A stretch of 64,000 nucleotides of DNA from Lentilitoribacter sp. Alg239-R112. Its GTDB lineage: Bacteria > Pseudomonadota > Alphaproteobacteria > Rhizobiales > Rhizobiaceae. The translations under genes and the position numbers were made by a program. A model generated the notes under the pieces. That model saw nothing but the letters and a program-made list of their open reading frames with translations. It was not told where the DNA came from and made no database searches. This document shows, one piece after another, positions 33,051 through 46,885 of this stretch (positions are counted from its first letter, which is position 1; the number at the start of each line of letters is the position of its first letter). The DNA lies in contig NZ_LS999833.1 in assembly GCF_900537175.1 (NCBI RefSeq), positions 2,046,001-2,110,000 on the forward strand. Reading direction: 5' to 3'.

Positions 33051-33943
33051 CGGGCTTGTCGCAAAGTTTTCCAATTAACTCAATTTTGAGATTTTAGTGA
33101 TGAAACGGAACTCCAATTTTCTGGAGTATTGCGTTATGATCCTTAATGAGCTTATCAAAAAGCTGAAGTCTCGATCCAAGAATGATTTCAAAGGACGCCA
33201 GTTTGAAGGGTGGCTGATCATTCAAGCTGTCGCTTGGTATTTGCGTTACCCGCTAAGCTATCGAGATCTTGAAGAAATGTTCTTGGAGCGTGGATTTGAG
33301 GTCGATCATAGTACAATTAATCGTTGGGTCTTGACCTATGCTCCTATGATAGAGAAACGATTGCGTCAGTTCCGGAAACCACATTGTGGTTCAATTCGAA
33401 TTGATGAAACTTATGTCAAAATTCGCGGACAATGGAAGTATCTGTACCGAGCTATCGACAAACACGGCAACCCTGTAGATTTCCTACTTACCTCAAAGCG
33501 TGATTTAAGTGCAGCTAAGCGGTTCTTCCACAAGATGCTCAAGGATGAGCCCTTGCTCGCACCACAAAAACTTGGAACCGATGGTGCAAACACATTTCCA
33601 TCCACAATCAAAACGTCTATCGAAGAAGGGTTGCTCCGTCCCGACCCTGTACATTACGTCACCAAACACTTGCAACAAGGCATTGAAAGTGACCATTTCA
33701 GAGTTAAAAAAAACATGCCAAAAGTTGGTGATTTTCAATCCTTCAATACGGCCAGGCGAACCATTGCTGGTTTCGAAGCCATGTTGTGGTTGAGGAAAGG
33801 CTTTGGCAATTCTTACAGTTGGAATGTTAACAATCAGAATGAATTACTCGGGCACCTATTCGGACTTCAATGGGTTAACAAAGTATGAATGCAGCGAAGG
33901 CCAGGGTTAATTACGCCCTGAGATAATCTTTGCGACAAGCCCG
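33051..33943 (+). mobile_element. Intact IS6-family element (IS-C)
   Basis: About 893 bp with perfect 16-bp terminal inverted repeats: CGGGCTTGTCGCAAAG at 33051-33066 and its complement ending at 33943. It encodes one full-length transposase. The 8 bases on each side do not match, so the ends have likely recombined or caused an adjacent deletion; the right end interrupts an SDR gene. Confidence 0.88.
33100..33888 (+). CDS. IS6-family transposase (intact)
   Basis: This protein of about 262 residues moves the surrounding IS element by replicative transposition. The N-terminal HTH region contains RYPLSYRDLEEMFLERGFEV and HSTINRWV. The DDE triad is visible: Asp in IRIDETYVKIRG, Asp in LGTDGANTFPS and Glu in GIESDHFRVKK. 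The C-terminus carries RRTIAGFEAMLWLRKG. The ATG at 33100 is next to an in-frame GTG; an ATG at 33136 is also possible. No frameshift is seen. Confidence 0.9.
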   Translation: MKRNSNFLEYCVMILNELIKKLKSRSKNDFKGRQFEGWLIIQAVAWYLRYPLSYRDLEEMFLERGFEVDHSTINRWVLTYAPMIEKRLRQFRKPHCGSIRIDETYVKIRGQWKYLYRAIDKHGNPVDFLLTSKRDLSAAKRFFHKMLKDEPLLAPQKLGTDGANTFPSTIKTSIEEGLLRPDPVHYVTKHLQQGIESDHFRVKKNMPKVGDFQSFNTARRTIAGFEAMLWLRKGFGNSYSWNVNNQNELLGHLFGLQWVNKV

Positions 33944-34428: not shown

Positions 34429-35297
34429 GGTAGTGTCGCAAAGTTTACGATCAGTTCATTTTGATTTTGTAATAGACCTTTAGTTCAGCATCTATTCAAA
34501 TCGAGATTTCAATGATTAACTTTAATGGTAGCCACTACCCAAAAGGAGTTATCCTGTACGCAGTTTTCTTCTATGTCAGATACGCCGTTTCCTATCGTGA
34601 CTTAGAAGAAATAATGGCGGAGCGAGGTGTAGAAGTTGACCACGCAACACTGAACAGATGGGTGGTTAAGTTTAGCCCATTGATTGCCTGTGAAGCTCAG
34701 CGGAGAAAGTCTGCAACCAACAATTCGTGGCGCATGGACGAAACCTACATCAAAGTGAAGGGCAAGTGGACTTACTATTATCGTGCTGTCGACAAGAATG
34801 GCAAAACCCTTGATTTCATGTTGTCTGAGCAACGGGACGCCAAAGCAGCTCGGCGTTTTTTCAAACAAGCCATTGATACTAACGATGTGCCAGACAAGGT
34901 GGTTATCGACAAGAGTGGGGCTAATTTGGCCGGGCTGTAATGGACCAATGTGATGTTGAAATTCTCGGACGAAAGTAAATTGATCAAGATATTGCAGGTA
35001 AAATATCTCCTTCTCACGCATTTAGAATGCGCTGTTAGAATGCGCTGTCAGGCAACGGAATAATATCGTAGAACAGGATCATAGGTTTATCAAAAGACTG
35101 GCGCGCGCCATGATGCACTTCAAATCGTTCCGCTCGGCTTCAGCAACGCTGCAAGGCATCGAGATTGCACATATGATTCGCAAACGTCAGTTCGGTAGAA
35201 CCAACAAATCTGCATTCCAACAATTTGCTGCGCTCGCCGGATAATTGTGTCCACAGATAAGATAAATTTACCCTACACTAAACTTTGCGACACTACC
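34429..35297 (+). mobile_element. Decayed IS6-family element (IS-B, copy 2)
   Basis: About 869 bp with inverted ends GGTAGTGTCGCAAAGTTTA at 34429 and its complement ending at 35297. It has full IS6 length but a broken transposase. Its left end truncates the glycerol-dehydrogenase-like gene and its right end stands 38 bases from the fucose operon. Confidence 0.85.
34512..35244 (+). pseudogene. IS6-family transposase with nonsense codon and tandem duplication
   Basis: The first 142 codons read well: VSYRDLEEIMAERGVEVDHATLN, Asp in WRMDETYIKVKG and Asp in VIDKSGANLAGL. Then a TAA stop at 34938 replaces the codon that is CTA in copy 1. Further on, a perfect 13-bp tandem duplication of TTAGAATGCGCTG (35022-35034 and 35035-35047) shifts the frame. 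The rest, with Glu in NIVEQDHRFIKR and ending QQFAALAG, is intact in the other frame up to further small changes. Confidence 0.85.
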
Positions 35298-35335: not shown

Positions 35336-36625
35336 TCATTCGGCGGTCAGGACACGTTGGAAGGTATATTCAATGATGCTTTCCGGCTTCATCTCGATCG
35401 AGAACCCTGGAAGGAATGGGGTCAAATAGGCACCGTTTTCGATGATACAAGGATCAACAAAGTGCTCGTGCAAGTGATCCACAAATTCGATCCGTTTGCT
35501 GTCTTTTTCGCCCGTAATCGCGAGGTAATCGATCATCGACATGTGCTGGACGTATTCGCACAAGCCAACACCGCCTGCGTGCGGCCAAACCGGTAAGTCG
35601 TATTTTGCGGCCATCAGCATCACGGCTAACACCTCGTTCAGCCCGCCCATGCGACAGCTGTCAATCTGCACGATGTCAATCGCGCCGTCCTTGATGAACT
35701 GTTTGAACATGATCCTGTTCTGACACATCTCACCAGTCGCCACTTTGATCGGAGCAATCGCCTCGCGGATGGTTTTATGGCCCGAGACATCGTCGGGCGA
35801 TGTGGGTTCTTCCATGAAGTACGGCTTGGCGAACGCGAGTTCCTTGATCCATTCGATAGCCTGATCAACTTCCCAGACCTGATTGGCGTCGATCATGATG
35901 TTCATGTCCCAGCCCAGTTCTTCGCGCGCGATGGTTAGGCGGCGGATGTCGTCTTGTAGATCGCGGCCAACCTTGAACTTGGTATGGGTGAAGCCCGCGT
36001 CTTTGGCCTCGCGGCACAGACGGCGCAATTTGTCGTCGGGGTAGCCGAGCCATCCCGCTGACGTCGTGTAACAAGGGTATCCTTCCGCCTTCAGTTTTTC
36101 GATCCGCGCGGCCTTACCACCTGCAGCCTCTTGCAAAATTGCAAGCGCCTCGTCTGGGGTGATCGCGTCCGTTATGTAGCGGAAATCGATCAAGCTGACG
36201 ATTTCTTCGGGGGACATTTCCCCAACCAATTGCCAAACTGGTTTGCCCGCGTCTTTGGCCCACAGGTCCCACACCGCGTTGACCACCGCCCCCGTGGCCA
36301 GATGGATCGCACCCTTGTCAGGTCCAATCCAACGCAACTGGCTGTCGGATGTCACGTGGCGCCAAAAACGGCCCATGTCTTCTTTGATCCAGTCCAATTC
36401 AAGCCCCACCAATCGGTCGCGCAAGGCATGGATTGCGGCCACGCAAATCTCGTTCCCGCGCCCGATGGTGAACGTTAAACCGTGGCCCTCGTGTGCGCCG
36501 TCGGTTTCCAACACAACATAAGCCGCCGAATAATCCGGATCAGGGTTCATCGCGTCTGATCCGTCCAAGCTCTCGGACGTGGGGAAGCGCAAATCATGGG
36601 TGCGTAAACTGATAATTCTTGTCAT
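35336..36625 (-). CDS. L-fuconate dehydratase (enolase superfamily)
   Basis: This 429-residue protein should turn L-fuconate into 2-keto-3-deoxy-L-fuconate. Family marks are LRFPTSESLDGSDAMNPDPDYS at the start, the catalytic Lys pair region THTKFKVGRDLQDD, metal ligands in NIMIDANQVW, FMEEPTSPDD and VATGEMCQNR, and the catalytic His in WPHAGGVGLCEYVQH. It is the last gene of the fucose operon and overlaps the preceding gene by 4 bases. The base composition is visibly more GC-rich than the polyol operon. Confidence 0.92.
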   Translation of the reverse strand: MTRIISLRTHDLRFPTSESLDGSDAMNPDPDYSAAYVVLETDGAHEGHGLTFTIGRGNEICVAAIHALRDRLVGLELDWIKEDMGRFWRHVTSDSQLRWIGPDKGAIHLATGAVVNAVWDLWAKDAGKPVWQLVGEMSPEEIVSLIDFRYITDAITPDEALAILQEAAGGKAARIEKLKAEGYPCYTTSAGWLGYPDDKLRRLCREAKDAGFTHTKFKVGRDLQDDIRRLTIAREELGWDMNIMIDANQVWEVDQAIEWIKELAFAKPYFMEEPTSPDDVSGHKTIREAIAPIKVATGEMCQNRIMFKQFIKDGAIDIVQIDSCRMGGLNEVLAVMLMAAKYDLPVWPHAGGVGLCEYVQHMSMIDYLAITGEKDSKRIEFVDHLHEHFVDPCIIENGAYLTPFLPGFSIEMKPESIIEYTFQRVLTAE

Positions 36626-37464
36626 GCGGAGGCCTGTACCGTTTGACGCTGCACGCCAAGGCCTTCGATCCCAAGCTCCATCACGTCGCCCGGTTTCAGA
36701 TATGTTTCAGGGGTTTGCCCCATGCCCACGCCTGGTGGCGTCCCGGTCGAGATCACATCACCCGGCTGCAGCGACATGAACTGCGACAAGTGCGAGATGA
36801 TCGTGGCCACATCAAAGTGCATCGTGCGGGTCGAACCATCCTGATAACGATAGCCGTTTACTTCGAGATACATGGATAGGTCTTGGGGGTTCCCGACCTC
36901 GTCACGTGTCACTAACCATGGGCCAATTGGCCCAAACGTATCGGCAGATTTGCCTTTAACCCACTGACCAGAGCGATGGATTTGAAAGTCGCGTTCAGAC
37001 AGATCGTTTATCACGCAATAGCCCGCAACATGATCCAGCGCGTCTTCCTTGCTGACATACTTGGTGTGCTTACCAATCACCACGCCCAGCTCAACCTCCC
37101 AATCGGTCTTGACCGAATTGCGCGGAATATCGACCATGTCGTTCGGGCCTGTGATGGCAGAGGTTGCCTTGAAGAAGACAACCGGTTCTTGCGGCAGCTC
37201 CATTCCGCTTTCGGCGGCGTGGTCGGCATAGTTCAGGCCAATACAGATAAACTTTCCGACGTTGCCGACGCAGGAGCCAAGGCGTGTCTCTGAATCCACA
37301 ACTTGCAACTTGGTGGGGTCCAATACGCGCACTCGATCCAACACCTCATCAGACAGCGCACTGCCGCTCAGATCATCGATGTAATCAGAAAGATCCAAGA
37401 TCACCCCTTCAAACAACAGACCGGGTTTTTCTTCGCCTGCGGGGCCATAACGTAGTAATTTCAT
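36622..37464 (-). CDS. Fumarylacetoacetate hydrolase-family protein (2,4-diketo-3-deoxy-L-fuconate hydrolase)
   Basis: This 280-residue protein has ICIGLNYADHAAESG, the metal-binding Glu residues in WEVELGVVIGK, the Asp in VINDLSERDFQ and the glycine-rich VISTGTPPGVGMGQ. In oxidative L-fucose breakdown this family cleaves the diketo acid to pyruvate and lactate. The place between fuconate dehydratase and an SDR supports that reaction over aromatic degradation. Confidence 0.87.
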   Translation of the reverse strand: MKLLRYGPAGEEKPGLLFEGVILDLSDYIDDLSGSALSDEVLDRVRVLDPTKLQVVDSETRLGSCVGNVGKFICIGLNYADHAAESGMELPQEPVVFFKATSAITGPNDMVDIPRNSVKTDWEVELGVVIGKHTKYVSKEDALDHVAGYCVINDLSERDFQIHRSGQWVKGKSADTFGPIGPWLVTRDEVGNPQDLSMYLEVNGYRYQDGSTRTMHFDVATIISHLSQFMSLQPGDVISTGTPPGVGMGQTPETYLKPGDVMELGIEGLGVQRQTVQASA

Positions 37465-37482
37465 AGGTATCTCCGGTTAATT

Positions 37483-38220
37483 TCAGATGGCCCAGCCGCC
37501 ATCGATGACGTGGGTCTGGCCTGTAGTAAATGCGCTGTCGTCGCTAGCGAGGTACAGGGCGAGGGATGCGATTTCTGCGGCATGTCCGATGCGGCCCAAA
37601 GGCTGACGGGCGATAAAATCTTTCAGTGCCTGATCATAATCGCCAGTCGCGCGCAAACGGTCATGCAAACTGGGGCTTTCGACGGTACCCGGACAAATGG
37701 CGTTGCAACGCACCTTGTCGGTTACGTGATCCGCCGCGACTGCCTTGGTCAGGCCGATAACGGCTGCCTTGGATGCACAATAGGCCAAGCGATTTGGCAC
37801 GCCCTTGATCGAAGAGGCCACGGACGACATATTGATGATCGACCCGCCGCCAATCACAATCATGCCTGGCAGAATCAATTTGATCAACCGGTATTGCGCC
37901 TTCACATTCAGATCAAAACTGAAGTCCCAGTCTTTCTCGTCACATTCCGCAATCGCGCCATTGGCAACATAACCGGCACAGTTGAACAGTGCATTCAAAG
38001 GCCCGATATCGGCAATCGCAGCTTCCACAGCAGCACCGTCCAACACATTCAACGCACGTGCCGTGATCCCATCAATCGCATCAAGCTCAGCCAATGCGGC
38101 TTCATTGATATCCGTCGCAATCACCCGTGCTCCCTCGGCCGCAAACATCTCAGCGGTCGCGCGACCAATCCCTTGTCCCGCAGCGGTGATAAGGACGGTT
38201 TTGCCTTTTAGTTTGGTCAT
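37483..38220 (-). CDS. SDR oxidoreductase (2-keto-3-deoxy-L-fuconate dehydrogenase)
   Basis: This protein of 245 residues has the NAD motif ITAAGQGIGRATAEMFA, Asp in VIATDINEAA, NCAGYV, the Ser in INMSSVAS and the Tyr-Lys pair in AYCASKAAVIGLTK. It should oxidise 2-keto-3-deoxy-L-fuconate to the 2,4-diketo acid. The ATG at 38220 overlaps the amidohydrolase stop as ATGA and gives a proper N-terminus; the longer frame would add 16 unlikely residues. Confidence 0.87.
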   Translation of the reverse strand: MTKLKGKTVLITAAGQGIGRATAEMFAAEGARVIATDINEAALAELDAIDGITARALNVLDGAAVEAAIADIGPLNALFNCAGYVANGAIAECDEKDWDFSFDLNVKAQYRLIKLILPGMIVIGGGSIINMSSVASSIKGVPNRLAYCASKAAVIGLTKAVAADHVTDKVRCNAICPGTVESPSLHDRLRATGDYDQALKDFIARQPLGRIGHAAEIASLALYLASDDSAFTTGQTHVIDGGWAI

Positions 38221-39080
38221 GCGATGACACCTTTTGGATTTAATCGTGGATACCAATTGATCGCGCAATCATACCAAAGCGCGGCTTGTTCTAAGCTGTT
38301 GAAATCACGTGACATGGCCCAAGACACAAGGCTTGCCACCCAGACCTTTTCGAGTTCGGTCAATTGCGCGACAGGAAAATTGCTGGCAGCCATCAACCGC
38401 TGTGGACCGAATTGCGTACATACGAAATCCATCACAGCGAACAGGTCGACGTCAGTCGGCATTCCCTCGTAGGGCTCAATCAAGCCGGACATCTTAGTTG
38501 CGACGTTCGGGCGTTTGGCCAGTTTTTGCAAACCGTTGCGCCATGCATGATTTGACAAGGCGTTTTGTGGCGGAAGTCCGCAATGATCCAACACGATTTT
38601 ACCTGAGAATTGATCAGCAAGGTCACAGGAGAATTCAAGTTGATCTACAGGTGCTAAAAGTTCAATCGTAACATTATCGTTTGCCAATAGGGTCAAGACT
38701 GCCATTGGTTCATCATTCAGCAACCGACCCGGATTCGACATTCTATTTAGCATCAATCGAACCCCGCAAACACAAGGCTGAGCAATCAACTGTTTGGCGC
38801 GATCCAAGGCATCGGTTGCAGTTGGATCGATCCATGCCACCACACCAGCAATCTGGTCTAACCGAGATGCATGTTTGATCAACCACTCCGAATGGCTATC
38901 GTCAGGGGCGGATTGCACCACAATTGCGCGACTGAACCCACAGCCTGCTAAATGCGCTCGCAAAGCAACGCTTGTCGCTTTGTCATTCAGTTCGGGATGC
39001 GTATCGCAGATCAAAATGTCGTCACGACGTTGTGGATCCCAAAGGTGAACATGAGCGTCTATGGCATTTTCCATCATCAT
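38217..39080 (-). CDS. Amidohydrolase family protein (L-fuconolactone hydrolase)
   Basis: This protein of 287 residues begins with the metal-binding AIDAHVHLWDPQRRDD. It also has FSRAIVVQSAPDDSHSEW, VVAWIDPTATDAL, the Lys/His region of GKIVLDHCGLPP and the late Asp-type region RLMAASNFPVAQL, where family members usually have the catalytic Asp in GSDWP; here the residue is Asn. It should open L-fucono-1,5-lactone. Start and stop overlap both neighbours by 4 bases. Confidence 0.82.
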   Translation of the reverse strand: MMMENAIDAHVHLWDPQRRDDILICDTHPELNDKATSVALRAHLAGCGFSRAIVVQSAPDDSHSEWLIKHASRLDQIAGVVAWIDPTATDALDRAKQLIAQPCVCGVRLMLNRMSNPGRLLNDEPMAVLTLLANDNVTIELLAPVDQLEFSCDLADQFSGKIVLDHCGLPPQNALSNHAWRNGLQKLAKRPNVATKMSGLIEPYEGMPTDVDLFAVMDFVCTQFGPQRLMAASNFPVAQLTELEKVWVASLVSWAMSRDFNSLEQAALWYDCAINWYPRLNPKGVIA

Positions 39081-39979
39081 GCCCGCAACCCCAAGGGTGC
39101 GACGTTTTCCCAAAACTCTTGCGGGATATTGGTTTTCAATGCGGACAGGCTTTGCTCAAGCTGACAGGCCGTAGAAACACCTAACAAAAGGGTGTCGACC
39201 GCCGAATGACGTGTTGGAAAAGACAAAGCTGCGTTTATCAATTGGATTCCACTTGCTTGTGCAAGGTCATGTATTCGGGTGGCGGCGTCACGCTCAACGA
39301 CAGTCGCTGGGCGATAATCAAACGATGCCGCCTCAACAGGCCGTTTAGCCAGCAAGCCAGAATTTAATACACCACCCGCAACAACGGCTGTGCGTTTCTG
39401 GGCGCACAACGGCAACAGATTTCGAGCGGCACTTCGGTCAAGCAAGGTCCAGCGCCCCGCCACCAGAACCACATCGGCTGCGCCGCGATAGATAGCTGCA
39501 ATTAAGCCAGCATTTGTATTACACCCAGCGCCGATCAAACCTATCTCCCCCTTAGCTTGCAGGTCTTTGAGAACGGGTAAGGCTTCGGCTAGCGCCGCCT
39601 CAGGTGCCATTTCGATATCATGCAGGAAAACGCAATCTAGGTAGTCACGACCCAATCGGTCTTGCGACCGCCGAATGGAAGCTCGCGTGGTTGCTTCGGA
39701 GAAATCCCAAACATCCGGAGTATCATTTGGGCCTGGTGCGGCCACACCGAGTTCGCGATAGCGGCCAACCTTTGTCGACACAAAAACATCGCGTGCAGCC
39801 TGAGATTTCAAGACCTTACCAAGACGAATTTCGGCCTGCCCGCCGCCGTAAAGCGCCGCTGTATCAAAGTATTTAATACCGCTGTCCAAAGCCAACGACA
39901 ATGTCCGTTCGGCCTCTGACAGATCAGTAAGCGCAAGCGCGGCAGTGCCAAGCCCGAGTGAGGGAACCTTCTCCATCAT
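39077..39979 (-). CDS. Aldo/keto reductase (L-fucose dehydrogenase type)
   Basis: This protein of about 300 residues has the catalytic set Asp and Tyr in KYFDTAALYGGGQAE, Lys in VFVSTKVGRY and His in CVFLHDIEMAPE. The C-terminus carries ALSFPTRHSAVDTLLLGVSTA, the NADP-binding end. In this context it should oxidise L-fucose to the lactone with NAD(P), the first step of the pathway. The ATG at 39979 overlaps the permease stop. Confidence 0.85.
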   Translation of the reverse strand: MMEKVPSLGLGTAALALTDLSEAERTLSLALDSGIKYFDTAALYGGGQAEIRLGKVLKSQAARDVFVSTKVGRYRELGVAAPGPNDTPDVWDFSEATTRASIRRSQDRLGRDYLDCVFLHDIEMAPEAALAEALPVLKDLQAKGEIGLIGAGCNTNAGLIAAIYRGAADVVLVAGRWTLLDRSAARNLLPLCAQKRTAVVAGGVLNSGLLAKRPVEAASFDYRPATVVERDAATRIHDLAQASGIQLINAALSFPTRHSAVDTLLLGVSTACQLEQSLSALKTNIPQEFWENVAPLGLRA

Positions 39980-40770
39980 GACACAAGACCCCAACGACGG
40001 ACTGTTACGCGTTCAATTGGAACAAACAACAACCGGTCAAGGACTAACCATAATATGCCGATCAAGATCATGCCCAGTACGACAATCTCTGTTTGATACC
40101 ACTGGACCGCTTCGAGTGTCATATAGCCGATCCCGTTTGTGCCCGCGATCATTTCAGCGGCCACAAGGGCACGCCAACCGTAGGCCATCGAGGTCCGCAG
40201 CCCGACAAGTATCTGCACCAGTGCACCAGGTACAACGACCGTTGTTATGACGTCCCAGCGATTAGCTCCGTGAGACTGCGCCGCGCGATACAAGACCGGC
40301 GGAATAGATTGCACACCAATTACGGTCGAATAGATGCTTGAAAAGAAAATCGTATTCACGATCACAAAAAGAACCGATCCCCCTCCGACGCCAAACCAAA
40401 TAATGGCCAGCGGCACCCAAGCGATGCCGGCAATCGATTGAAAAAAACTGAGAACTGGCGTCAATGTCTCAGCCACAGCACGGTTCAGCGCAATTGCCAA
40501 CCCAAGTGGAATAGCAATCAGATTGCCCAAAACATAGGCTGTTGCAAGTCGTTGAAGGCTTGCCCAGACCTCTGACAATAGGCTCCCGTCAAGCAGCATG
40601 TCCTGAAAAATGCCCCAAACTTTTCCGGGTGATGGCAATTTATAGGCCGGTATATCGGAAATTTGCGGGGTCAACGCCCATGCAGCCAAAATAACGATAA
40701 ACGGTAAAAGCCCTGTGACCAACGCAGGACTGATACGTGGCTTAGGCGGCATTTGGATTGCAGTGTTCAT
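39976..40770 (-). CDS. ABC transporter permease (SsuC/TauC type), second copy
   Basis: This protein of 264 residues has about six hydrophobic segments and the EAA-like loop of the nitrate/sulfonate/taurine class: YRAAQSHGANRWDVITTVVVPG near residues 165-190. It is paired with the next permease gene, whose stop overlaps its start by 4 bases. A heterodimer of two different permeases is unusual in this class, where a homodimer is common. Confidence 0.88.
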   Translation of the reverse strand: MNTAIQMPPKPRISPALVTGLLPFIVILAAWALTPQISDIPAYKLPSPGKVWGIFQDMLLDGSLLSEVWASLQRLATAYVLGNLIAIPLGLAIALNRAVAETLTPVLSFFQSIAGIAWVPLAIIWFGVGGGSVLFVIVNTIFFSSIYSTVIGVQSIPPVLYRAAQSHGANRWDVITTVVVPGALVQILVGLRTSMAYGWRALVAAEMIAGTNGIGYMTLEAVQWYQTEIVVLGMILIGILWLVLDRLLFVPIERVTVRRWGLVS

Positions 40771-41591
40771 GTATTGCCCCCTTGGTTGCGGACAAGACCC
40801 CACCGCACGATTGTTGCTTGTTCGACAGGGCGTAAAAGCAATCTATCAATAAGCAGCCACATAACGCCCATCATGATCATACCGACAACGACCCGATCGG
40901 TTTGCCGTGTCGTGGCACCATCAAATATCAAGAAACCGATGCCAGATCCCGCGGCAATCATTTCTGCAAAAATAAGCCCTCGAAACGCAAACCCTGCGCC
41001 TACGCGAAAACCTGTAGTGATGTTGGGCAACGCTGACGGAATAACCACGGTTGTAAGCACTTGCCAGCGCGTAGCACCCAATGTTTGCATCGCATTGATC
41101 AATACGCGCTGGACGGTCTGCACGCCCGTAAGTGTGTTGTAGAGAACTGGAAAGAAGACGACATATGCAATCGCGATTACGATGGTGTTAAAGCCGTAGC
41201 CAATCCAAATCACCAGCAAGGGGATCCATGCGACCTCGACGATTGCGTAGAAAAAGTTGATAATTGGACCCAAAAGACGTGACCAGAACCGTGACAGCCC
41301 AATCAACAAACCAAACGCCAAGCCAAGACCTAGCCCTGTTGCCACACTCACTGAATAGCGGACTGCGCTGTCAACTAAATATTCTGGCAGGATCCCTTTT
41401 TTCGTCAATTCCACAAAAGCGGCGAATACGTCAGTGGGGGCTGGGTAAAAGTATGCGGGTAAGGCAATGATCCATACTGAAACCTGCCAAGTGACAAGGA
41501 CGCTCACTATCCCAAGGATACCGCGCCACTGAGCAGTAGATACAATCGGACGCCCATGTAGATTTTGAACATTATCAGTTGGGTTTGTCAT
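40767..41591 (-). CDS. ABC transporter permease (SsuC/TauC type), first copy
   Basis: This 274-residue membrane protein has the loop INAMQTLGATRWQVLTTVVIPSA and ends KVRWGL-like in TIVRWGLV. It is clearly related to the second permease (shared layout of both the loop and the ending) but far from identical, so the pair is an old duplication. It would carry an anionic, probably sulfate-bearing, substrate judged from the sulfatase in the operon. Confidence 0.88.
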   Translation of the reverse strand: MTNPTDNVQNLHGRPIVSTAQWRGILGIVSVLVTWQVSVWIIALPAYFYPAPTDVFAAFVELTKKGILPEYLVDSAVRYSVSVATGLGLGLAFGLLIGLSRFWSRLLGPIINFFYAIVEVAWIPLLVIWIGYGFNTIVIAIAYVVFFPVLYNTLTGVQTVQRVLINAMQTLGATRWQVLTTVVIPSALPNITTGFRVGAGFAFRGLIFAEMIAAGSGIGFLIFDGATTRQTDRVVVGMIMMGVMWLLIDRLLLRPVEQATIVRWGLVRNQGGNT

Positions 41592-41914
41592 CGTGCAGCC
41601 TCGTAGGTCTCGATCCTTTCAATCCAATAGTTCCGCGCCAATTGCCGTAACTCTTGGGGATCGCTAGACAAGATTACAGCCCGCCCGTCTGCCCAGCCTT
41701 GGTATCGCCCAACATCTTGAAACTTTTCGAGATGGAACCTCTCTGGAGTGAACCCCAAACTGATCACTACGTCTGGCCGACCGGAAAGATCTATGTCCGC
41801 AAGATTTCGCGCAGAGGTGAATTGGCCAATCAAATTAGTCAAGATTAACATGACTGCTAATCCACTAAGCGTCATGAGCGGTGTGCGCCAAGCTGGGTGA
41901 ATGGATAAGGTCAT
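41588..41914 (-). CDS. Small membrane-anchored protein of unknown function in the ABC operon
   Basis: This protein of 108 residues has one N-terminal hydrophobic segment (about residues 14-30: LSGLAVMLILTNLIGQF) and an exported or cytoplasmic C-terminal part with DVVISLGFTPERFHLEK and SSDPQELRQLARNYWIER. No family is recognised. It sits between the ATPase and first permease genes with 4-base overlaps on both sides, so it is a genuine co-translated gene and probably an accessory subunit of the importer. Confidence 0.75.
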   Translation of the reverse strand: MTLSIHPAWRTPLMTLSGLAVMLILTNLIGQFTSARNLADIDLSGRPDVVISLGFTPERFHLEKFQDVGRYQGWADGRAVILSSDPQELRQLARNYWIERIETYEAAR

Positions 41915-42705
41915 CGGCTCGGGTCTCTGACCAGTTTCATGACTTTGTCCCGCAATTCAACAAACTTGGGATCATTGGAAATCGTGTCCCAGTGACGTGC
42001 TTCGCGTGGGATATCGATGTCGACGATTTCACGCACGTAACCTGGGCCAGGTGTCAGAACAGCAACACGGTCGGCAAGGAATACTGCCTCTTCGACCGAG
42101 TGTGTGATGAACAAAACGGTAATGGGGTGCGCGTCCCAGACCCTCAAAAGTTCCTCTTGTAAGGAAAGTCGTGTCTGCGCATCCACAGCTGCAAACGGCT
42201 CGTCCATCATCATAATTTCGGGTGTATTGGCCAAGGTGCGAGCAACCGCAACGCGTTGACGCATACCGCCGGACAATTCGTGAGGGTATTTCTTCGCTGC
42301 ATCGGCGAGCCGTGCCATCGTCAGGTATTTCATTGCAGTATCTTCGCGCTCGACCTTCGGAACGCCGCGATACTTTAGCCCGATCGCGACATTATCCAAA
42401 ACTGTTTTCCAAGGCAGCAATGCATATTCTTGAAAGACAACACCGCGGTCCGCACCGGGCTGAGTAATAGGTTTTCCATCCATCATGATGGTGCCATCGC
42501 GGGGAGACATAAACCCCGCGATGGCTGACAATAAGGTGGATTTGCCGCAACCCGAGGGGCCAACGACGCACAGAAATTCGTTCCTGTTGATGTCGAGGTG
42601 TAAACCCTCAACTGCTACGTTGGATTCGCGCTGTTCTTCGTTGACGTGAACAAGTGTCACATCGTCGATTACGATTTTTATTTCTCGGGTTGCTGACATT
42701 TTCAT
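41911..42705 (-). CDS. ABC transporter ATPase (SsuB/TauB type)
   Basis: This 264-residue ATPase has Walker [16 protein letters not shown] near residue 48, Q-loop VVFQEYALLPWKT, signature LSGGMRQRVAVAR, Walker B IMMMDEPFAAVD and H-loop LFITHSVEEAV. The LSGGMRQR form is typical of nitrate/sulfonate/taurine importers. It energises the two permeases. The start ATG at 42705 lies 5 bases behind the binding-protein stop; a second ATG two codons later is possible. Confidence 0.92.
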   Translation of the reverse strand: MKMSATREIKIVIDDVTLVHVNEEQRESNVAVEGLHLDINRNEFLCVVGPSGCGKSTLLSAIAGFMSPRDGTIMMDGKPITQPGADRGVVFQEYALLPWKTVLDNVAIGLKYRGVPKVEREDTAMKYLTMARLADAAKKYPHELSGGMRQRVAVARTLANTPEIMMMDEPFAAVDAQTRLSLQEELLRVWDAHPITVLFITHSVEEAVFLADRVAVLTPGPGYVREIVDIDIPREARHWDTISNDPKFVELRDKVMKLVRDPSR

Positions 42706-42710
42706 TGACC

Positions 42711-43748
42711 TCAGTAAGCTGCGCGGTCAGCAGGGATGGGATCGAGATCTGAGAACACTTCAGGTGTGTTCGCCTGCACTCCAGCTAAGAACTGCGTGTC
42801 GATTGCGCCCGATGGATCAAAGTTTTCGTCAATCCGTCCAAGCCCCATCAAGAATGGAATTGTCTTTTCCTGATACATTTGAGCGGTATATGTCGACATA
42901 CGCGGATCAAGGTTTACACTGCTTAGAGCGAGCGTCATTGTTTCCAGATCAACACCCTGAATCCAGCGCATATTGATTTCGGCTGCATCCGCAGGATTCT
43001 GCCTTACCCACTGCTGGCTCTCTGCAAAGGCTTCCATGAATTTTTGAAGTGTCTCTGCATTGTCCGCAACAGCTGACTGGGTTGTCAGGATGGTACCGGG
43101 GTCATAACACTGCGGGCATCCCCCGGCCTGTACCAGAACCGAACCTTCGACTTTGGTCACTGCTGTGGCACCCCAAGGCTGCCAGATGGCGACAGCATCG
43201 ACATCGTTTTGATTGAGCGCTGTTGTCAATTCAGCTGGCGGAACGTTGATCAACTCAACATCATCCTCACCCAAACCAGCCGCTCCAAGTGCACCCAGCA
43301 AAAAACCTTCGGCTCCGGTTCCACGTGGTAGGCCGATCCGTTTGCCAGCCAATGCCGCAATGTCCCCAGCTGCAACACCTGACGCTTCAGAGGCGACAAT
43401 CGATTGGTTATCTGAATATGAGTCCCGATTTGGATCACCGTGCAAATGCCCAATGAGAACAAGTGGGAAACCCCGCGCAAGTCCGCTCAGGTATGGCACA
43501 GAGCCCATGACGTTCACTTCTTGCGCGCCATTCAAAAGGCCATTCACCATGTCGACACCAGATTGGTACATGACAACTTCGGCATCTAGACCGTGCGCAG
43601 CAAAGATGCCGCGTTCCACACCGACAAACACCGGTGAGTGGTCAACTGCGCCCGCAGCACCGATACGTATTTGTTCTAGGTCTTGGGCAAATGCGCCTCC
43701 CGACAACGTCGCTGCGACCACCGCAGAGATAAGTAATTTCTTAAGCAT
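42711..43748 (-). CDS. NMT1/TauA-type substrate-binding protein
   Basis: This protein of 345 residues begins with the signal peptide MLKKLLISAVVAATLSGGAFA, so the ATG at 43748 is the start. The mature part opens IRIGAAGAVDHSPVFVGVERG, the usual opening of this family, with GAQEVNVMGSVPYLSG and KRIGLPRGTGAEG in the binding lobe. Family members bind sulfonates, taurine, nitrate or thiamine precursors. The operon's sulfatase and fucose enzymes suggest a sulfated sugar, which would be a new ligand type. Confidence 0.88.
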   Translation of the reverse strand: MLKKLLISAVVAATLSGGAFAQDLEQIRIGAAGAVDHSPVFVGVERGIFAAHGLDAEVVMYQSGVDMVNGLLNGAQEVNVMGSVPYLSGLARGFPLVLIGHLHGDPNRDSYSDNQSIVASEASGVAAGDIAALAGKRIGLPRGTGAEGFLLGALGAAGLGEDDVELINVPPAELTTALNQNDVDAVAIWQPWGATAVTKVEGSVLVQAGGCPQCYDPGTILTTQSAVADNAETLQKFMEAFAESQQWVRQNPADAAEINMRWIQGVDLETMTLALSSVNLDPRMSTYTAQMYQEKTIPFLMGLGRIDENFDPSGAIDTQFLAGVQANTPEVFSDLDPIPADRAAY

Positions 43749-43785
43749 GTTAGTTCCTCCATAAGTTTGCTTTAATCTGTTGTTT

Positions 43786-45249
43786 CTACTCCAACCTGTT
43801 GATTTCCGGTGAAAAAGTCCAAATATGGCTACTGACGGGCTGTACGTTCTTTGCCCATTCAAGCAGTAAATCTTTTTCGATACGGCGTGTTTTCATCCGT
43901 TCAACGATGTCCTGAGGGTTCCAATCCTGAGTGAGCTTTTGCATGAGCGCTTCGAGCTTCTCACGGTGTTCTGGCAACGCCGCTAGGTCGGTTGTTTCCA
44001 GCGGATCGTTTTCCAGATCAAACAACTGTGGAGCCTCACTGTCGTAGATGCATAATTTCCAATTATCTGCGCGGATCATTCGCTGTTGAACTGCGCGCGC
44101 GCCCGTCCAATGCGGCACAGGATCAGTGCAATATTCGGAAAATGTTTCGTTGAGCCAAGGAGCAGAAGAGGTTTTCGCGACATCCCAAAAACTCTTACCA
44201 TTGGCATGTGGGAGTTGCGACGCGCCCATCGCTTCGAGCATGGTTTGGCTCAGGTCCACCAGATTGACGACCTGTTTGCGAACTTCACCCGCGGGTAACA
44301 CACCAGGCAAACGCATAACCAGGGGCACTTTCACAGATTCATCAAAGAACGTATGTTTCCACCATAGACCACGTTCCCCCAAATGATCACCATGATCAGA
44401 GGCATAGACAATCAGTGTGTCGTCCAGCAAACCAGCTTCCTCAAGTGCATCCAAAACACGTCCGATCATCTCGTCCATGCGGTGAACCAGCCCACAGTAC
44501 GCTGTTCGAGCTCTATCAGTCTGTTCCGGCGTTACGGTATCAATGCCACGATCTTTTCGCCACCAGGCGTGAAACTCGTGTTCGTCGTCAACCGGCTTTT
44601 GCTCTGGCGGAGGCACCATGCCTTCGTAGATCTTGTAAGCCTCTTGATCGACAACATATGGTGGATGCGGCAACATCAACCCAACGGTCAAACAAAACGG
44701 CTTACCAGCGGAATTTAAAGCCAGAGCCTCATTCTTGAGCCAGCTCTCGGCAGCCGTCGTGACATCTTCGTCTTTTTCCTGATACGCGCTGTAACCCGCT
44801 CCCGCCTTTTCAAGTGACTCTGGTGTCGGATCGTTTGTTCCCTCCAACACCCCCAATGATTGGCGCGCACCGCCAGGCCAATTCGGGCTGTGGTCACCCA
44901 CTGGGCGATCCCCATATCCATGTAACTGATCAGGGCCGATGGCATGCAATCGACCAATCAAGGTCGTCTGGTATCCTTTCGCTCCGGCAGCGTGCAGCCA
45001 CGTCGGCAGATCTGAACGCAAGATGTCATCGTTCACCCAACAATCTTGACGGCTCGGCCAACGCGCTGTCAGCATCGCCATTCGGCTCGGCACACAAATT
45101 GGCGAGGGACAATATGCATTATCAAACCGCACGCCTTCCGCTGCCAACCGATCAATATTGGGCGTTTGCACAACCTTGTCACCATAACACCCAGACATCT
45201 TTTGATTATGCTGATCCGAGAACAAGAATAGGATATTTGGCCGCTTCAT
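43786..45249 (-). CDS. Type I sulfatase without signal peptide
   Basis: This protein of 487 residues carries the formylglycine signature CVPSRMAMLTARWPSR near residue 50, where the Cys is the modified catalytic residue. Metal and sulfate ligands are seen in LFSDQHNQKMSG, GRLHAIGPDQLHGYGD, LPHPPYV, YASDHGDHLGERGLWWK. The start MKRPNILFLFSDQ leaves no room for a signal peptide, so it acts in the cytoplasm and its substrate must be imported. The ATG overlaps the GntR stop as ATGA. A sulfated fucose is the simplest substrate in this operon; choline sulfate-like substrates are less fitting. Confidence 0.88.
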   Translation of the reverse strand: MKRPNILFLFSDQHNQKMSGCYGDKVVQTPNIDRLAAEGVRFDNAYCPSPICVPSRMAMLTARWPSRQDCWVNDDILRSDLPTWLHAAGAKGYQTTLIGRLHAIGPDQLHGYGDRPVGDHSPNWPGGARQSLGVLEGTNDPTPESLEKAGAGYSAYQEKDEDVTTAAESWLKNEALALNSAGKPFCLTVGLMLPHPPYVVDQEAYKIYEGMVPPPEQKPVDDEHEFHAWWRKDRGIDTVTPEQTDRARTAYCGLVHRMDEMIGRVLDALEEAGLLDDTLIVYASDHGDHLGERGLWWKHTFFDESVKVPLVMRLPGVLPAGEVRKQVVNLVDLSQTMLEAMGASQLPHANGKSFWDVAKTSSAPWLNETFSEYCTDPVPHWTGARAVQQRMIRADNWKLCIYDSEAPQLFDLENDPLETTDLAALPEHREKLEALMQKLTQDWNPQDIVERMKTRRIEKDLLLEWAKNVQPVSSHIWTFSPEINRLE

Positions 45250-45902
45250 GAGAAATCCTCTGGCTGCCCCAAAGACCGTCGCCACGATGTGCGCAGATGA
45301 TCTCTCAGAGCAACCACCGCGGCTTCCTCATTCTCATCCAGAAGAGCGTCAATTATCCCGATGTGTTCTTGCATTGCGGCCTTGAGCCGCTTGGACGTGT
45401 ATTTACCATTGAGGCGGATCAGTCTGATCTTGTCCTCCAACAGCCGGTAAGATTCATGTATAAGTTCATTCGAATAAGCCCCCATCAATAAGCTATGCAG
45501 CTCTAGATCTACGTTCAAACCAGCTTGAAAAAGCTCCGCTGAACTGTCAGTTTCTGCCTGCTCAATGATGGATTTAGTGCGATTGCGCAGATCATTTAAC
45601 GCCGAGCTATCAGAATTTCTGGCCATGCGCCGCACTGCCTCGGATTCGATGATGATACGAAACTCGAACGCATCATTGATGAACCTAACATTCACATCGG
45701 CAATCTGAATTCCGCGCTGCGCAATCAAACTAATCAACCCGTCTGATTCGAGTCGCTTAAGAGCCTCCCTCACCGCACCCATGGGTAGATCCAAAAGATC
45801 GCACAGTTCACGTTGCGAAACGAACTGGCCAGGTTTCAGTGATTGTTCAAAGAGGCTTTCCCGAAATTTTGTGTAGGCTATTTGGCGCAATGGTGCAGGC
45901 AT
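45246..45902 (-). CDS. GntR-family regulator (FadR/VanR subfamily)
   Basis: This 218-residue regulator has an N-terminal winged HTH (FVSQRELCDLLDLPMGAVREALKRLESDGL, so DNA binding is clear) and an all-helical FCD ligand domain with FEFRIIIESEAVRRMAR and a His in MQEHIGIIDALL. It is the first gene of the sulfatase-fucose operon and is likely an autoregulated, inducer-released repressor. The inducer may be fucose or an acid intermediate. Confidence 0.88.
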   Translation of the reverse strand: MPAPLRQIAYTKFRESLFEQSLKPGQFVSQRELCDLLDLPMGAVREALKRLESDGLISLIAQRGIQIADVNVRFINDAFEFRIIIESEAVRRMARNSDSSALNDLRNRTKSIIEQAETDSSAELFQAGLNVDLELHSLLMGAYSNELIHESYRLLEDKIRLIRLNGKYTSKRLKAAMQEHIGIIDALLDENEEAAVVALRDHLRTSWRRSLGQPEDFS

Positions 45903-46075: not shown

Positions 46076-46885
46076 GGATATTGCCAAGTTATTTCAGATC
46101 TCCGCATCTTGTAGTCAAATGCGATGAATAATTTAGCAGTCTTGCCCCGCCTCAAGGGCTACCGTTTTTCGCGAGCGATCATATCATACGCCGTTTGGAC
46201 GTATCACCGCTTCAATTTGAGCACTGCCGATGTCGAAGGTCTTTTGGCAGAACGCGGGATCACTGTTAGCCGTGAAGCGATCCGTCTTTGGGTCAATCGT
46301 TTTGGTCAACATTTCGCAGATTGCATTAGGCGCGATCGTCCGCGGCCGAACGACAAGTGGCATATAGACGAAGTCGTGATTACGATCCGTGGTCGGAAAC
46401 ACTGGCTATGGCGCGCGATCGACGCAAATGGTGACGTTCTTGATATCCTGGTGCAAACACGTCGTAATGCCAAAGCAGCAAAGCGCTTTTTCAAAAGATT
46501 AGTTGTAAGGTTTGGGGAGCCTAGGGTCGTGATCACCGACAAATTACGCAGTTACATCAAACCTATCAAAACACTGGCAAAGAACGCTGACCATCGCGCC
46601 CACAAAGGCCTGAATAATGCGATCGAGGTGTCACACAGGCCGACCCGCAAACGAGAGAAGATAATGGGCCGGTTCAAATCTCACCGACAGGCTCAGAGGT
46701 TTCTGCTTGCGCATGACCAGATCAACTTGATCTTCCGCCCCCGCCGCTACCAACTCAATGCAGCCTCTTACCGCCACGCCCGTTCTGATGCGTTTAGTCT
46801 CTGGGCCGACTACACCACAGAAATGAAGGCTTGATCTAGCCATCCACAACCCTTTACAATCTGGTGCAAACAACTTGGCAATACC
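46076..46885 (+). mobile_element. Intact IS6-family element (IS-A, copy 3)
   Basis: About 810 bp with ends GGATATTGCCAAGTT at 46076 and AACTTGGCAATACC ending at 46885. The transposase frame is whole. It stands just upstream of the fucose operon's regulator, so together with IS-B at 34429 it brackets the GC-rich fucose block. Confidence 0.85.
46124..46834 (+). CDS. IS6-family transposase (intact)
   Basis: This 236-residue transposase has HTH region STADVEGLLAERGITVSREA, then the DDE residues: Asp in HIDEVVITIRG, Asp in VVITDKLRSY and Glu in NAIEVSHRPTRKREK. The end carries GRFKSHRQAQRFL, typical of this IS6 branch. It is the likely source of enzyme for the two defective IS-A copies. The three IS types of the window share the same fold but this one is clearly a separate branch from IS-B and IS-C. 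Confidence 0.9.
   Translation: MNNLAVLPRLKGYRFSRAIISYAVWTYHRFNLSTADVEGLLAERGITVSREAIRLWVNRFGQHFADCIRRDRPRPNDKWHIDEVVITIRGRKHWLWRAIDANGDVLDILVQTRRNAKAAKRFFKRLVVRFGEPRVVITDKLRSYIKPIKTLAKNADHRAHKGLNNAIEVSHRPTRKREKIMGRFKSHRQAQRFLLAHDQINLIFRPRRYQLNAASYRHARSDAFSLWADYTTEMKA

What the first reader, a model, noticed from the sequence alone, without database searches (positions are those of the whole stretch)
35336..45902. Operon coupling a signal-less sulfatase and a TauABC-type importer to the full oxidative L-fucose pathway
One strand carries GntR regulator, sulfatase with CVPSR, binding protein, ATPase, small membrane protein, two permeases and then the five L-fucose oxidation enzymes, mostly with 4-base overlaps. 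The sulfatase has no signal peptide, so its substrate must be brought in. NMT1/TauA-type importers usually carry sulfonates or other small anions, not sugars. Together this suggests direct uptake of a fucose sulfate, as from algal fucoidan or mucin, with desulfation inside the cell. I know of no described fucose-sulfate importer of this type.
Basis: inference. Interest (0 to 1): 0.75.

Follow-up and report, generated by a model that had tools for sequence, protein, structure and literature searches.

The report
Operon for importing sulfated fucose
A twelve-gene bacterial operon, eleven genes of which recur in the same order in a second bacterium, appears to bring a small sulfated sugar (probably a fucose sulfate) into the cell, cut off the sulfate inside and burn the fucose; no experiment has yet shown the substrate.

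Summary
The operon is real: twelve minus-strand genes (45902 to 35336), seven of eleven junctions being 4-base overlaps. It encodes a GntR/FCD regulator, a signal-less formylglycine-type sulfatase, a NitT/TauT-type ABC importer with an unnamed one-TM protein, and AKR, lactonase, SDR, FAH hydrolase and L-fuconate dehydratase (the non-phosphorylating L-fucose route). It is not a chance assembly: MAG UBA4479 has eleven of these genes, sulfatase to dehydratase, in the same order on two contigs whose ends both lie in the AKR gene, and sulfatase and binding-protein homologues share contig lengths well above chance. The sulfatase is nearest by fold to choline sulfatase but lacks its choline hairpin and tail. 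The genome has two sulfatases, one FGE-family gene and no GH29 fucosidase. Best reading: uptake of a sulfate ester of L-fucose (L-galactose not excluded), desulfation in the cytoplasm, then oxidation. Against specificity: many sulfatase relatives sit with TctABC-type transporters and other genes, and lactonase/SBP linkage is statistically weak. The substrate is inferred, not shown. I saw no published description in the open-licence library searched. Verdict: a credible, testable new variant of organosulfate importer plus cytoplasmic sulfatase.

The parts
45246..45902 (-). GntR/FCD-type transcriptional regulator, first gene
   Evidence: PF00392 + PF07729; 65-68% homologues beside the 72-73% sulfatases of G099, G139, G174; 48% homologue between SBP and sulfatase in L028
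43786..45249 (-). Formylglycine-type sulfatase (CVPSR), 487 aa, no signal peptide
   Evidence: PF00884 + PF16347; choline-sulfatase model TIGR03417 309.6 bits, below its 433.45 cut-off; AlphaFold mean pLDDT 92.1, best fold 6fny choline sulfatase TM 0.86
42711..43748 (-). NitT/TauT-family substrate-binding protein with leader
   Evidence: PF09084/PF13379; SsuA_fam TIGR01728 150 bits, cut-off 163.5; fold SsuA/TauA/NrtA
41911..42705 (-). ABC transporter ATPase, NrtCD/TauB/SsuB-like
41588..41914 (-). Small protein, one N-terminal hydrophobic stretch, recurrent part of this importer type, no named family
   Evidence: no Pfam or NCBIfam match; BLAST-significant counterparts in L027, L069, L075, and by place and alignment in L028, L070, L071
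40767..41591 (-). ABC permease 1, TauC/SsuC-like
39976..40770 (-). ABC permease 2, TauC/SsuC-like
39077..39979 (-). Aldo/keto reductase, proposed L-fucose 1-dehydrogenase
   Evidence: PF00248; best solved relatives are L-galactose dehydrogenases, 83.8 bits
38217..39077 (-). Amidohydrolase, proposed L-fucono-lactonase (divergent)
   Evidence: PF04909; NF052480 116 bits, cut-off 400; PDB 4dlf 54.5 bits
37483..38220 (-). SDR, proposed L-2-keto-3-deoxyfuconate 4-dehydrogenase
   Evidence: PDB 8xwk 311.8 bits; its four named substrate residues all conserved: R144, R188, R205, W243
36622..37464 (-). FAH-family hydrolase, proposed L-2,4-diketo-3-deoxyfuconate hydrolase
   Evidence: NF053535 (rhamnonate-series hydrolase) 403.6 bits, cut-off 500; PDB 8gsr 304 bits
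35336..36625 (-). Enolase-superfamily L-fuconate dehydratase, last gene
   Evidence: PDB 4ip4 804 bits, L-fuconate dehydratase 2hne 568 bits
34429..35297 (+). IS6-family element with shortened transposase and 19-bp inverted ends, 38 bases below the operon
46079..46883 (+). Second, different IS6-family element above the operon, 16-bp inverted ends (94%)

Best explanation
The operon is a self-contained route for a sulfate ester of L-fucose (or, less likely, another sugar of the same L-galacto configuration). The binding protein captures the anion in the periplasm and the NitT/TauT-type ABC importer moves it in; the formylglycine sulfatase removes sulfate in the cytoplasm; the freed sugar is oxidised to the lactone (AKR), opened (amidohydrolase), dehydrated (L-fuconate dehydratase), oxidised again (SDR) and cleaved (FAH hydrolase) to pyruvate and lactate. 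The GntR protein probably controls it in response to the substrate or an intermediate. Shown: gene content, order, family identity, absence of a sulfatase signal peptide, recurrence of the coupling. Inferred: ligand, order of desulfation and oxidation, products, regulation.
For: Anatomy. L-fuconate dehydratase and L-KDF dehydrogenase identity by close solved relatives and four conserved substrate residues. Eleven genes in the same order in UBA4479 over two contigs. Contig-length coincidences: sulfatase/SBP 14 (jitter mean 0.5, maximum 4); sulfatase/lactonase 7 besides the window's own (mean 0.5, maximum 5), of which one contig of 1947 bases is too short for both genes; three lengths occur in all three lists. 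Genomes with a sulfatase of 68% identity or more have the dehydratase in 5 of 6, those below in 0 of 11 (line drawn after seeing the data). Sulfatase and importer also sit together in L028, L032 and L075. The genome has one FGE-family gene, two sulfatases, no GH29. A species of the same genus has a fucose cluster with a sugar-type importer (Peripla_BP_4, BPD_transp_2) and FucU instead.
Against: No ligand is shown. Lactonase and FAH score below the curated cut-offs of their nearest NCBIfam models. Close sulfatases in G099, G139 and G174 (72-73%) sit with TctABC, away from their fucose genes. Sulfatases of lower identity lie beside other sugar-acid type ORFs. G159 (68%) lacks the dehydratase, and no transporter was recognised beside its sulfatase (L059). 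The importer module also occurs without an adjacent sulfatase (L069, L070). SBP/lactonase contig coincidences (5) do not exceed the largest jitter value (6). The dehydratase is also found in 12 of 48 relatives without a close sulfatase; collapsed by genus the contrast with these is p 0.067.
Confidence: 0.6

Rival explanations
1. The sugar is L-galactose (for example an L-galactose sulfate of red algae or tunicates, sources recalled) or D-arabinose, which share the configuration at C2-C4 and can pass through the same enzymes.
For: Best solved relatives of the AKR are L-galactose dehydrogenases. The H. huttiense L-KDF dehydrogenase also uses L-KDGal and D-KDP (Table 1 passage). An exo-L-galactose-6-sulfatase is among the sulfatase's solved relatives, though a distant one.
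Against: The SDR keeps the Trp that contacts the C6 methyl of L-KDF, and L-KDF was the better substrate of the solved enzyme. The dehydratase is closest to L-fuconate dehydratases.
Confidence: 0.17
2. Two services in one operon: importer and sulfatase scavenge sulfur from some unrelated organosulfate, while the fucose enzymes use free fucose brought in by another system.
For: Related sulfatases and importers exist in other gene settings. NitT/TauT importers are known for sulfonates; acesulfame degraders pair an ABC importer with an unrelated sulfatase.
Against: Same order in UBA4479, and a 4-base overlap between permease and AKR in the window. Lactonase homologues share contig lengths with sulfatase homologues. 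No second copy of the lactonase (E <= 1e-30) or dehydratase (E <= 1e-60) in the genome.
Confidence: 0.13
3. Choline-O-sulfate (or another alkyl or aryl sulfate) importer and hydrolase.
For: Nearest fold and sequence among solved structures is S. meliloti choline sulfatase; JGI names many homologues choline-sulfatase. Three plasmid proteins annotated betC also lack the exact hairpin, so its absence alone is not decisive.
Against: The GW-X13-WYHN choline hairpin, present in four relatives, and the C-terminal tail are absent from the window protein and the 11 family members aligned. PF12411 is absent. TIGR03417 is below cut-off. No choline or betaine gene among the twelve.
Confidence: 0.04
4. The imported molecule is already an acid: a sulfated fuconate or lactone made outside, desulfated inside.
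For: More distant sulfatase relatives lie beside TctABC transporters and sugar-acid dehydratase-like ORFs (names mostly by eye, TctA and TctC).
Against: This operon has its own sugar dehydrogenase-type AKR and lactonase, useless for an acid.
Confidence: 0.06

Closest known systems
Non-phosphorylating L-fucose pathway, diketo-hydrolysis branch (X. campestris, H. huttiense; PMC11199699, abstract and passages)
   Same: Dehydrogenase, lactonase, L-fuconate dehydratase, L-KDF dehydrogenase, FAH hydrolase
   Different: Here in one operon with a sulfatase and an anion importer; no mutarotase gene among the twelve; lactonase divergent
Choline sulfatase BetC (PMC9063841, passages)
   Same: Formylglycine sulfatase of the same fold; cytoplasmic action on an imported organosulfate is recalled for BetC
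   Different: Choline hairpin and C-terminal tail missing; coupled to sugar oxidation
TauABC/SsuABC alkanesulfonate importers (PMC6906117, passages)
   Same: Same importer superfamily and binding-protein fold
   Different: Two permease genes and a small one-TM protein (one permease gene in TauABC is recalled); linked to a sulfatase; SBP fails the taurine model (46.6 of 304.25 bits)
Acesulfame cluster of Bosea and Chelatococcus (PMC10413263, passages)
   Same: ABC importer next to a sulfatase in a transposon setting
   Different: Metallo-beta-lactamase type sulfatase and a xenobiotic
Verrucomicrobial sulfated methyl pentose use (PMC8857213, passages)
   Same: Uses sulfated fucose with sulfatases
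   Different: High sulfatase content, GH29 fucosidases and microcompartments; here two sulfatases in the genome, no GH29
SAR202 and AEGEAN169 fucose users (PMC10444878, PMC11366302, passages)
   Same: Non-phosphorylating fucose oxidation in marine bacteria that probably cannot attack the polymer themselves
   Different: No sulfatase-importer operon is described in the passages seen
Ca. Phaeomarinobacter ectocarpi (PMC4110880, passage)
   Same: Alphaproteobacterium credited with sulfatases for sulfated fucans
   Different: Ten sulfatases and a GH29; no importer coupling in the passage seen

Membership tests
[quoted passage not shown]
   568 bits to 2hne, 804 to 4ip4 over residues 1-422; 64 bits to the L-rhamnonate dehydratase model
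[quoted passage not shown]
   All four conserved, constant offset of 4 to the 8xwk chain, the offset being my inference
Non-phosphorylating L-fucose pathway | cog3618-type fuconolactonase | tested here: inconclusive
   Related but far below the equivalog cut-off (116 of 400 bits; 4dlf 54.5 bits)
Non-phosphorylating L-fucose pathway | FAH-type diketo-acid hydrolase | tested here: inconclusive
   403.6 of 500 bits to the rhamnonate-series model; 304 bits to 8gsr
Non-phosphorylating L-fucose pathway | Enzyme activities on L-fucose and its products | not testable with these tools
   needs purified enzymes
Choline sulfatase (BetC) | GW-X13-WYHN choline hairpin | tested here: not met
   Present in L016, L020, L022 and L023; absent from the window and 11 family rows, also from three plasmid proteins annotated betC
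Choline sulfatase (BetC) | Choline_sulf_C tail (PF12411) | tested here: not met
   Absent; of three annotated betC controls only the A. brasilense one has it; the hairpin-bearing L016, L020, L022 were not scanned
Formylglycine sulfatase, family S1 | PF00884 with C-x-P-S-R | tested here: met
   CVPSR in 107 of the 120 listed homologues, own included
TauABC taurine importer | Taurine-binding protein model TIGR01729 | tested here: not met
   46.6 bits against 304.25
NitT/TauT-type ABC importer superfamily | NMT1-like SBP, NrtCD/TauB-like ATPase, TauC-like permeases | tested here: met
Fucose-sulfate importer (proposed) | Binding of a fucose sulfate | not testable with these tools
   needs binding assay

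The most novel reading that the evidence does not exclude
A family of NitT/TauT-type ABC importers, marked by a previously unnamed one-TM subunit, carries sulfated monosaccharides as such into Alphaproteobacteria, where a cytoplasmic branch of choline-sulfatase-like enzymes desulfates them; fucose sulfate would then be a dissolved currency that fucoidan degraders lose and others harvest without any secreted enzyme.
Probability: 0.45. Interest if true: 0.77.

Novelty: new variant of a known kind. Interest (0 to 1): 0.62.

Why it matters
Fucose-containing sulfated polysaccharides are slow to degrade and are discussed as a marine carbon store (starts of abstracts). Degradation is usually pictured with sulfatases outside the cytoplasm (recalled). 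A dedicated importer for the sulfated monomer would give non-degraders a private way to the sugar and hide the desulfation step from competitors; it would offer one answer to how fucose users without the full polymer-degrading set get their substrate, a question left open for AEGEAN169 (passage). It also gives a defined ligand set to test for a poorly annotated importer family.

Tried and rejected
Choline-O-sulfate was tested by hairpin, tail and model cut-offs and put aside. L-rhamnose sulfate was put aside because the dehydratase is far from L-rhamnonate dehydratase. A composite transposon was considered: two different IS6 elements flank the operon with unlike inverted ends, so it is not a simple composite transposon. 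Promoter and terminator scans were no better than shuffles (12 found, mean 9.5; 7 found, mean 11.4). In the plasmid collection the best sulfatase is 40% identical and the best SBP 43% (records of the window's own genome may be left out there). Only one of 397 order genomes (the own) has the lactonase at E <= 1e-30, so genome-level co-occurrence could not be counted for it. Literature searches on this question (the first and one search returned nothing) showed no description of a fucose-sulfate importer; I judged from listings, starts of abstracts and passages of nine papers. The library holds only open-licence papers. GH95 and fucoidanase families were not searched in the genome. In the tree all SBP-linked rows except L032, L075, P0065 and P0096 fall in two starred subclades, one of which holds the window; of the lactonase-linked rows P0047 and P0065 fall outside them. 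Two pairs of rows (L004/L052, L049/L053) were the same sequence extracted twice, so the second copies carry no information.
Full report
What is there. On the minus strand from 45902 to 35336 lie twelve ORFs in one direction: GntR/FCD regulator, sulfatase, NMT1-type binding protein, ATPase, a 108-aa protein, two permeases, aldo/keto reductase, amidohydrolase, SDR, FAH hydrolase and an enolase-superfamily dehydratase (families). Seven of eleven junctions are 4-base overlaps, one is a 1-base overlap, and the gaps are 37, 5 and 18 bases. The genes have 49-55% G+C, while the 26 two-kb windows outside 34-46 kb have 38.5-49.8%. Two unlike IS6 elements flank it (34429-35297 and 46079-46883). Together with the lack of close sulfatase orthologues in three same-genus genomes (best hits 34%), this points to horizontal acquisition.

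The fucose half. The last gene is an L-fuconate dehydratase by its nearest solved relatives (4ip4 804 bits; 2hne, named L-fuconate dehydratase, 568 bits). The SDR matches H. huttiense L-2-keto-3-deoxyfuconate 4-dehydrogenase (311.8 bits). The four residues that paper names for substrate recognition (Arg148, Arg192, Arg214, Trp252; PMC11199699, abstract and passages) correspond to R144, R188, R205 and W243 here (the numbering offset of 4 is my inference and is the same for all four). The FAH protein matches L-2,4-diketo-3-deoxyrhamnonate hydrolase (304 bits) and the AKR L-galactose dehydrogenases (83.8 bits). The lactonase is divergent (116 bits against a 400-bit cut-off). [quoted passage not shown] L-fucose and L-galactose cannot be told apart from sequence: the H. 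huttiense enzyme also turns over L-KDGal and D-KDP.

The sulfatase. It is a formylglycine-type sulfatase with CVPSR (PF00884). The chain starts at the first strand, so it has no signal peptide. Of the 120 homologues listed (own included, the best of 1385), 111 show the first-strand motif beginning within the first 13 residues, one at residue 29, and 8 did not match my pattern. Closest by sequence and by predicted fold (mean pLDDT 92.1) is choline sulfatase, TM 0.85-0.86 and 28-29% identity. The choline hairpin described in PMC9063841 (passages) is present in relatives L016, L020, L022 and L023 but absent from the window protein and the 11 family members aligned with it, and so is the C-terminal tail. 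Three plasmid proteins annotated betC also lack the exact hairpin, and only one of them has PF12411, so the annotation betC is loose and single absences are weak; together with the model cut-off (309.6 of 433.45 bits) they make this not a choline sulfatase, though of its fold. The genome has one FGE-family gene, two sulfatases in all (both start at the first strand by eye) and no GH29.

Is the coupling conserved? Yes. (a) In MAG UBA4479, L027 runs sulfatase (86%, from residue 8), SBP (91%), ATPase (91%), small (73%), permeases (90%, 94%), AKR residues 1-120 (81%) to its end. Another contig of the same MAG, L113, begins with AKR residues 135-299 (79%) and goes on with lactonase (71%), SDR (60%), FAH (61%), dehydratase (71%). 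That is the same order for eleven genes; that the two contigs join in the AKR gene is inferred, and whether a regulator precedes is unknown. (b) Among the 120 sulfatase, 120 SBP and 95 lactonase homologues listed, 14 contig lengths coincide between sulfatase and SBP; 7 besides the window's own between sulfatase and lactonase, of which one (1947 bases) is too short for both genes and one (44137) is an AKR-family protein matching half of the lactonase; 5 between SBP and lactonase. 11912, 23302 and 2915758 occur in all three lists. Jittered lengths gave means of 0.5, 0.5 and 0.8 and maxima of 4, 5 and 6. Equal length as same contig is an inference, only the longest contig of each protein is shown, and the last pair is not beyond its maximum. 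(c) Sulfatase and importer genes are neighbours also in L028 (68% sulfatase, divergent, with a 48% GntR between), in L075 (50%, divergent) and in L032 (54%, SBP about 1.1 kb away, contig ends). An Agrobacterium plasmid has the importer (SBP 43%) near a different sulfatase (28%) with its own FGE.

Results that cut the other way. In 397 genomes of the order, 12 have a sulfatase at E <= 1e-110, own included, but only 3, own included, have the SBP at E <= 1e-60, and in class-wide sampling 2 of 385, own included. Many sulfatase relatives stand near TctABC-type transporters instead: L034, L035, L057, L058, L060-L062, L065-L068, L029, L030/L064, L033 (TctA and TctC confirmed by Pfam for L034 and TctA for L098 only, the rest read by eye), several with UxaA-like, enolase-like or LarA-like ORFs (by eye). 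L036 and L037 have enolase-type ORFs, L037 also a 66% FAH homologue within 8 kb of a 51-54% sulfatase: other oxidative sugar-acid settings. Near the 68% sulfatase of G159 (L059) I recognised no transporter. The importer module also stands without an adjacent sulfatase in L069 and L070. So neither part is by itself specific for fucose. Homologues at 65% (sulfatase, P0034) and 40% (lactonase, P0256) are named Sinorhizobium medicae, so the kind is not confined to the sea.

A pattern that may reconcile this. Among 48 other relatives, hand-picked from the 97 without a close sulfatase, 12 have it (5 of 6 against 12 of 48: p 0.009, collapsed 0.067). The 68% line was drawn after seeing the data. In the tree the window's clade of 18 rows (100/99) includes both SBP-linked members and the TctABC-linked ones of G099, G139 and G174, whose genomes have the dehydratase elsewhere: the transporter seems to be exchanged while the sulfatase stays with fucose users (inference). 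In G139 the SDR-FAH-dehydratase trio lies beside yet another sulfatase with a TctA gene. In a species of the same genus (G001, L103) the fucose genes go with a sugar-type ABC importer and FucU, with no sulfatase among the ORFs listed, the ordinary free-fucose form.

How it most likely works. Another organism releases a sulfated fucose monomer (inferred); the binding protein and importer bring it in (inferred); the cytoplasmic sulfatase, presumably matured by the genome's one FGE-family protein, removes sulfate (enzyme class shown, substrate inferred); the five enzymes oxidise the fucose (families shown, activity inferred). Whether desulfation precedes oxidation cannot be told.

Novelty. Cytoplasmic sulfatase with importer is known for choline-O-sulfate (recalled; structure), and an ABC importer with an unrelated sulfatase for acesulfame (passages). 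I saw no report of a NitT/TauT importer for a sugar sulfate in searches of an open-licence library; subscription papers were not searched. Rated a new variant of a known kind.

Noticed in passing
G000:C1:2626196-2628763 (L038 7185-9764): The genome's other sulfatase, also without a signal peptide by eye, lies beside the only FGE-family gene and ORFs that look like a TAXI-type TRAP importer: a second possible organosulfate uptake locus.
   Followed up: partly
window 41588-41914 and L027, L028, L069, L070, L071, L075: Unnamed one-TM protein of about 110 aa between ATPase and permease genes of these importers.
   Followed up: partly
L029, L030/L064, L033, L060, L065: Cytoplasmic-type sulfatases near tripartite-type transporters with UxaA-like, enolase-like and LarA-like ORFs (names by eye): possible uptake loci for other sulfated sugar acids.
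   Followed up: partly
L071 1302-11029 (Agrobacterium sp. CGMCC 11546 plasmid pA): Same importer type beside a different sulfatase with its own formylglycine-generating enzyme and an alpha/beta hydrolase.
   Followed up: partly
L027 against L113: Importer genes are 90-94% identical to the window's (small protein 73%, sulfatase 86%), the fucose enzymes only 60-81%: the two halves of the operon evolve at different rates or have different histories.
   Followed up: no
protein P0243: The divergent lactonase has a 71% homologue named Planktomarina temperata, present in 228 contigs.
   Followed up: no
proteins P0034 and P0256: A 65% sulfatase and a 40% lactonase homologue are both named Sinorhizobium medicae; whether they are neighbours was not seen.
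   Followed up: no
window 33051-33943, 34429-35297, 46079-46883: Three IS6-family elements around the operon, one with a shortened transposase.
   Followed up: partly
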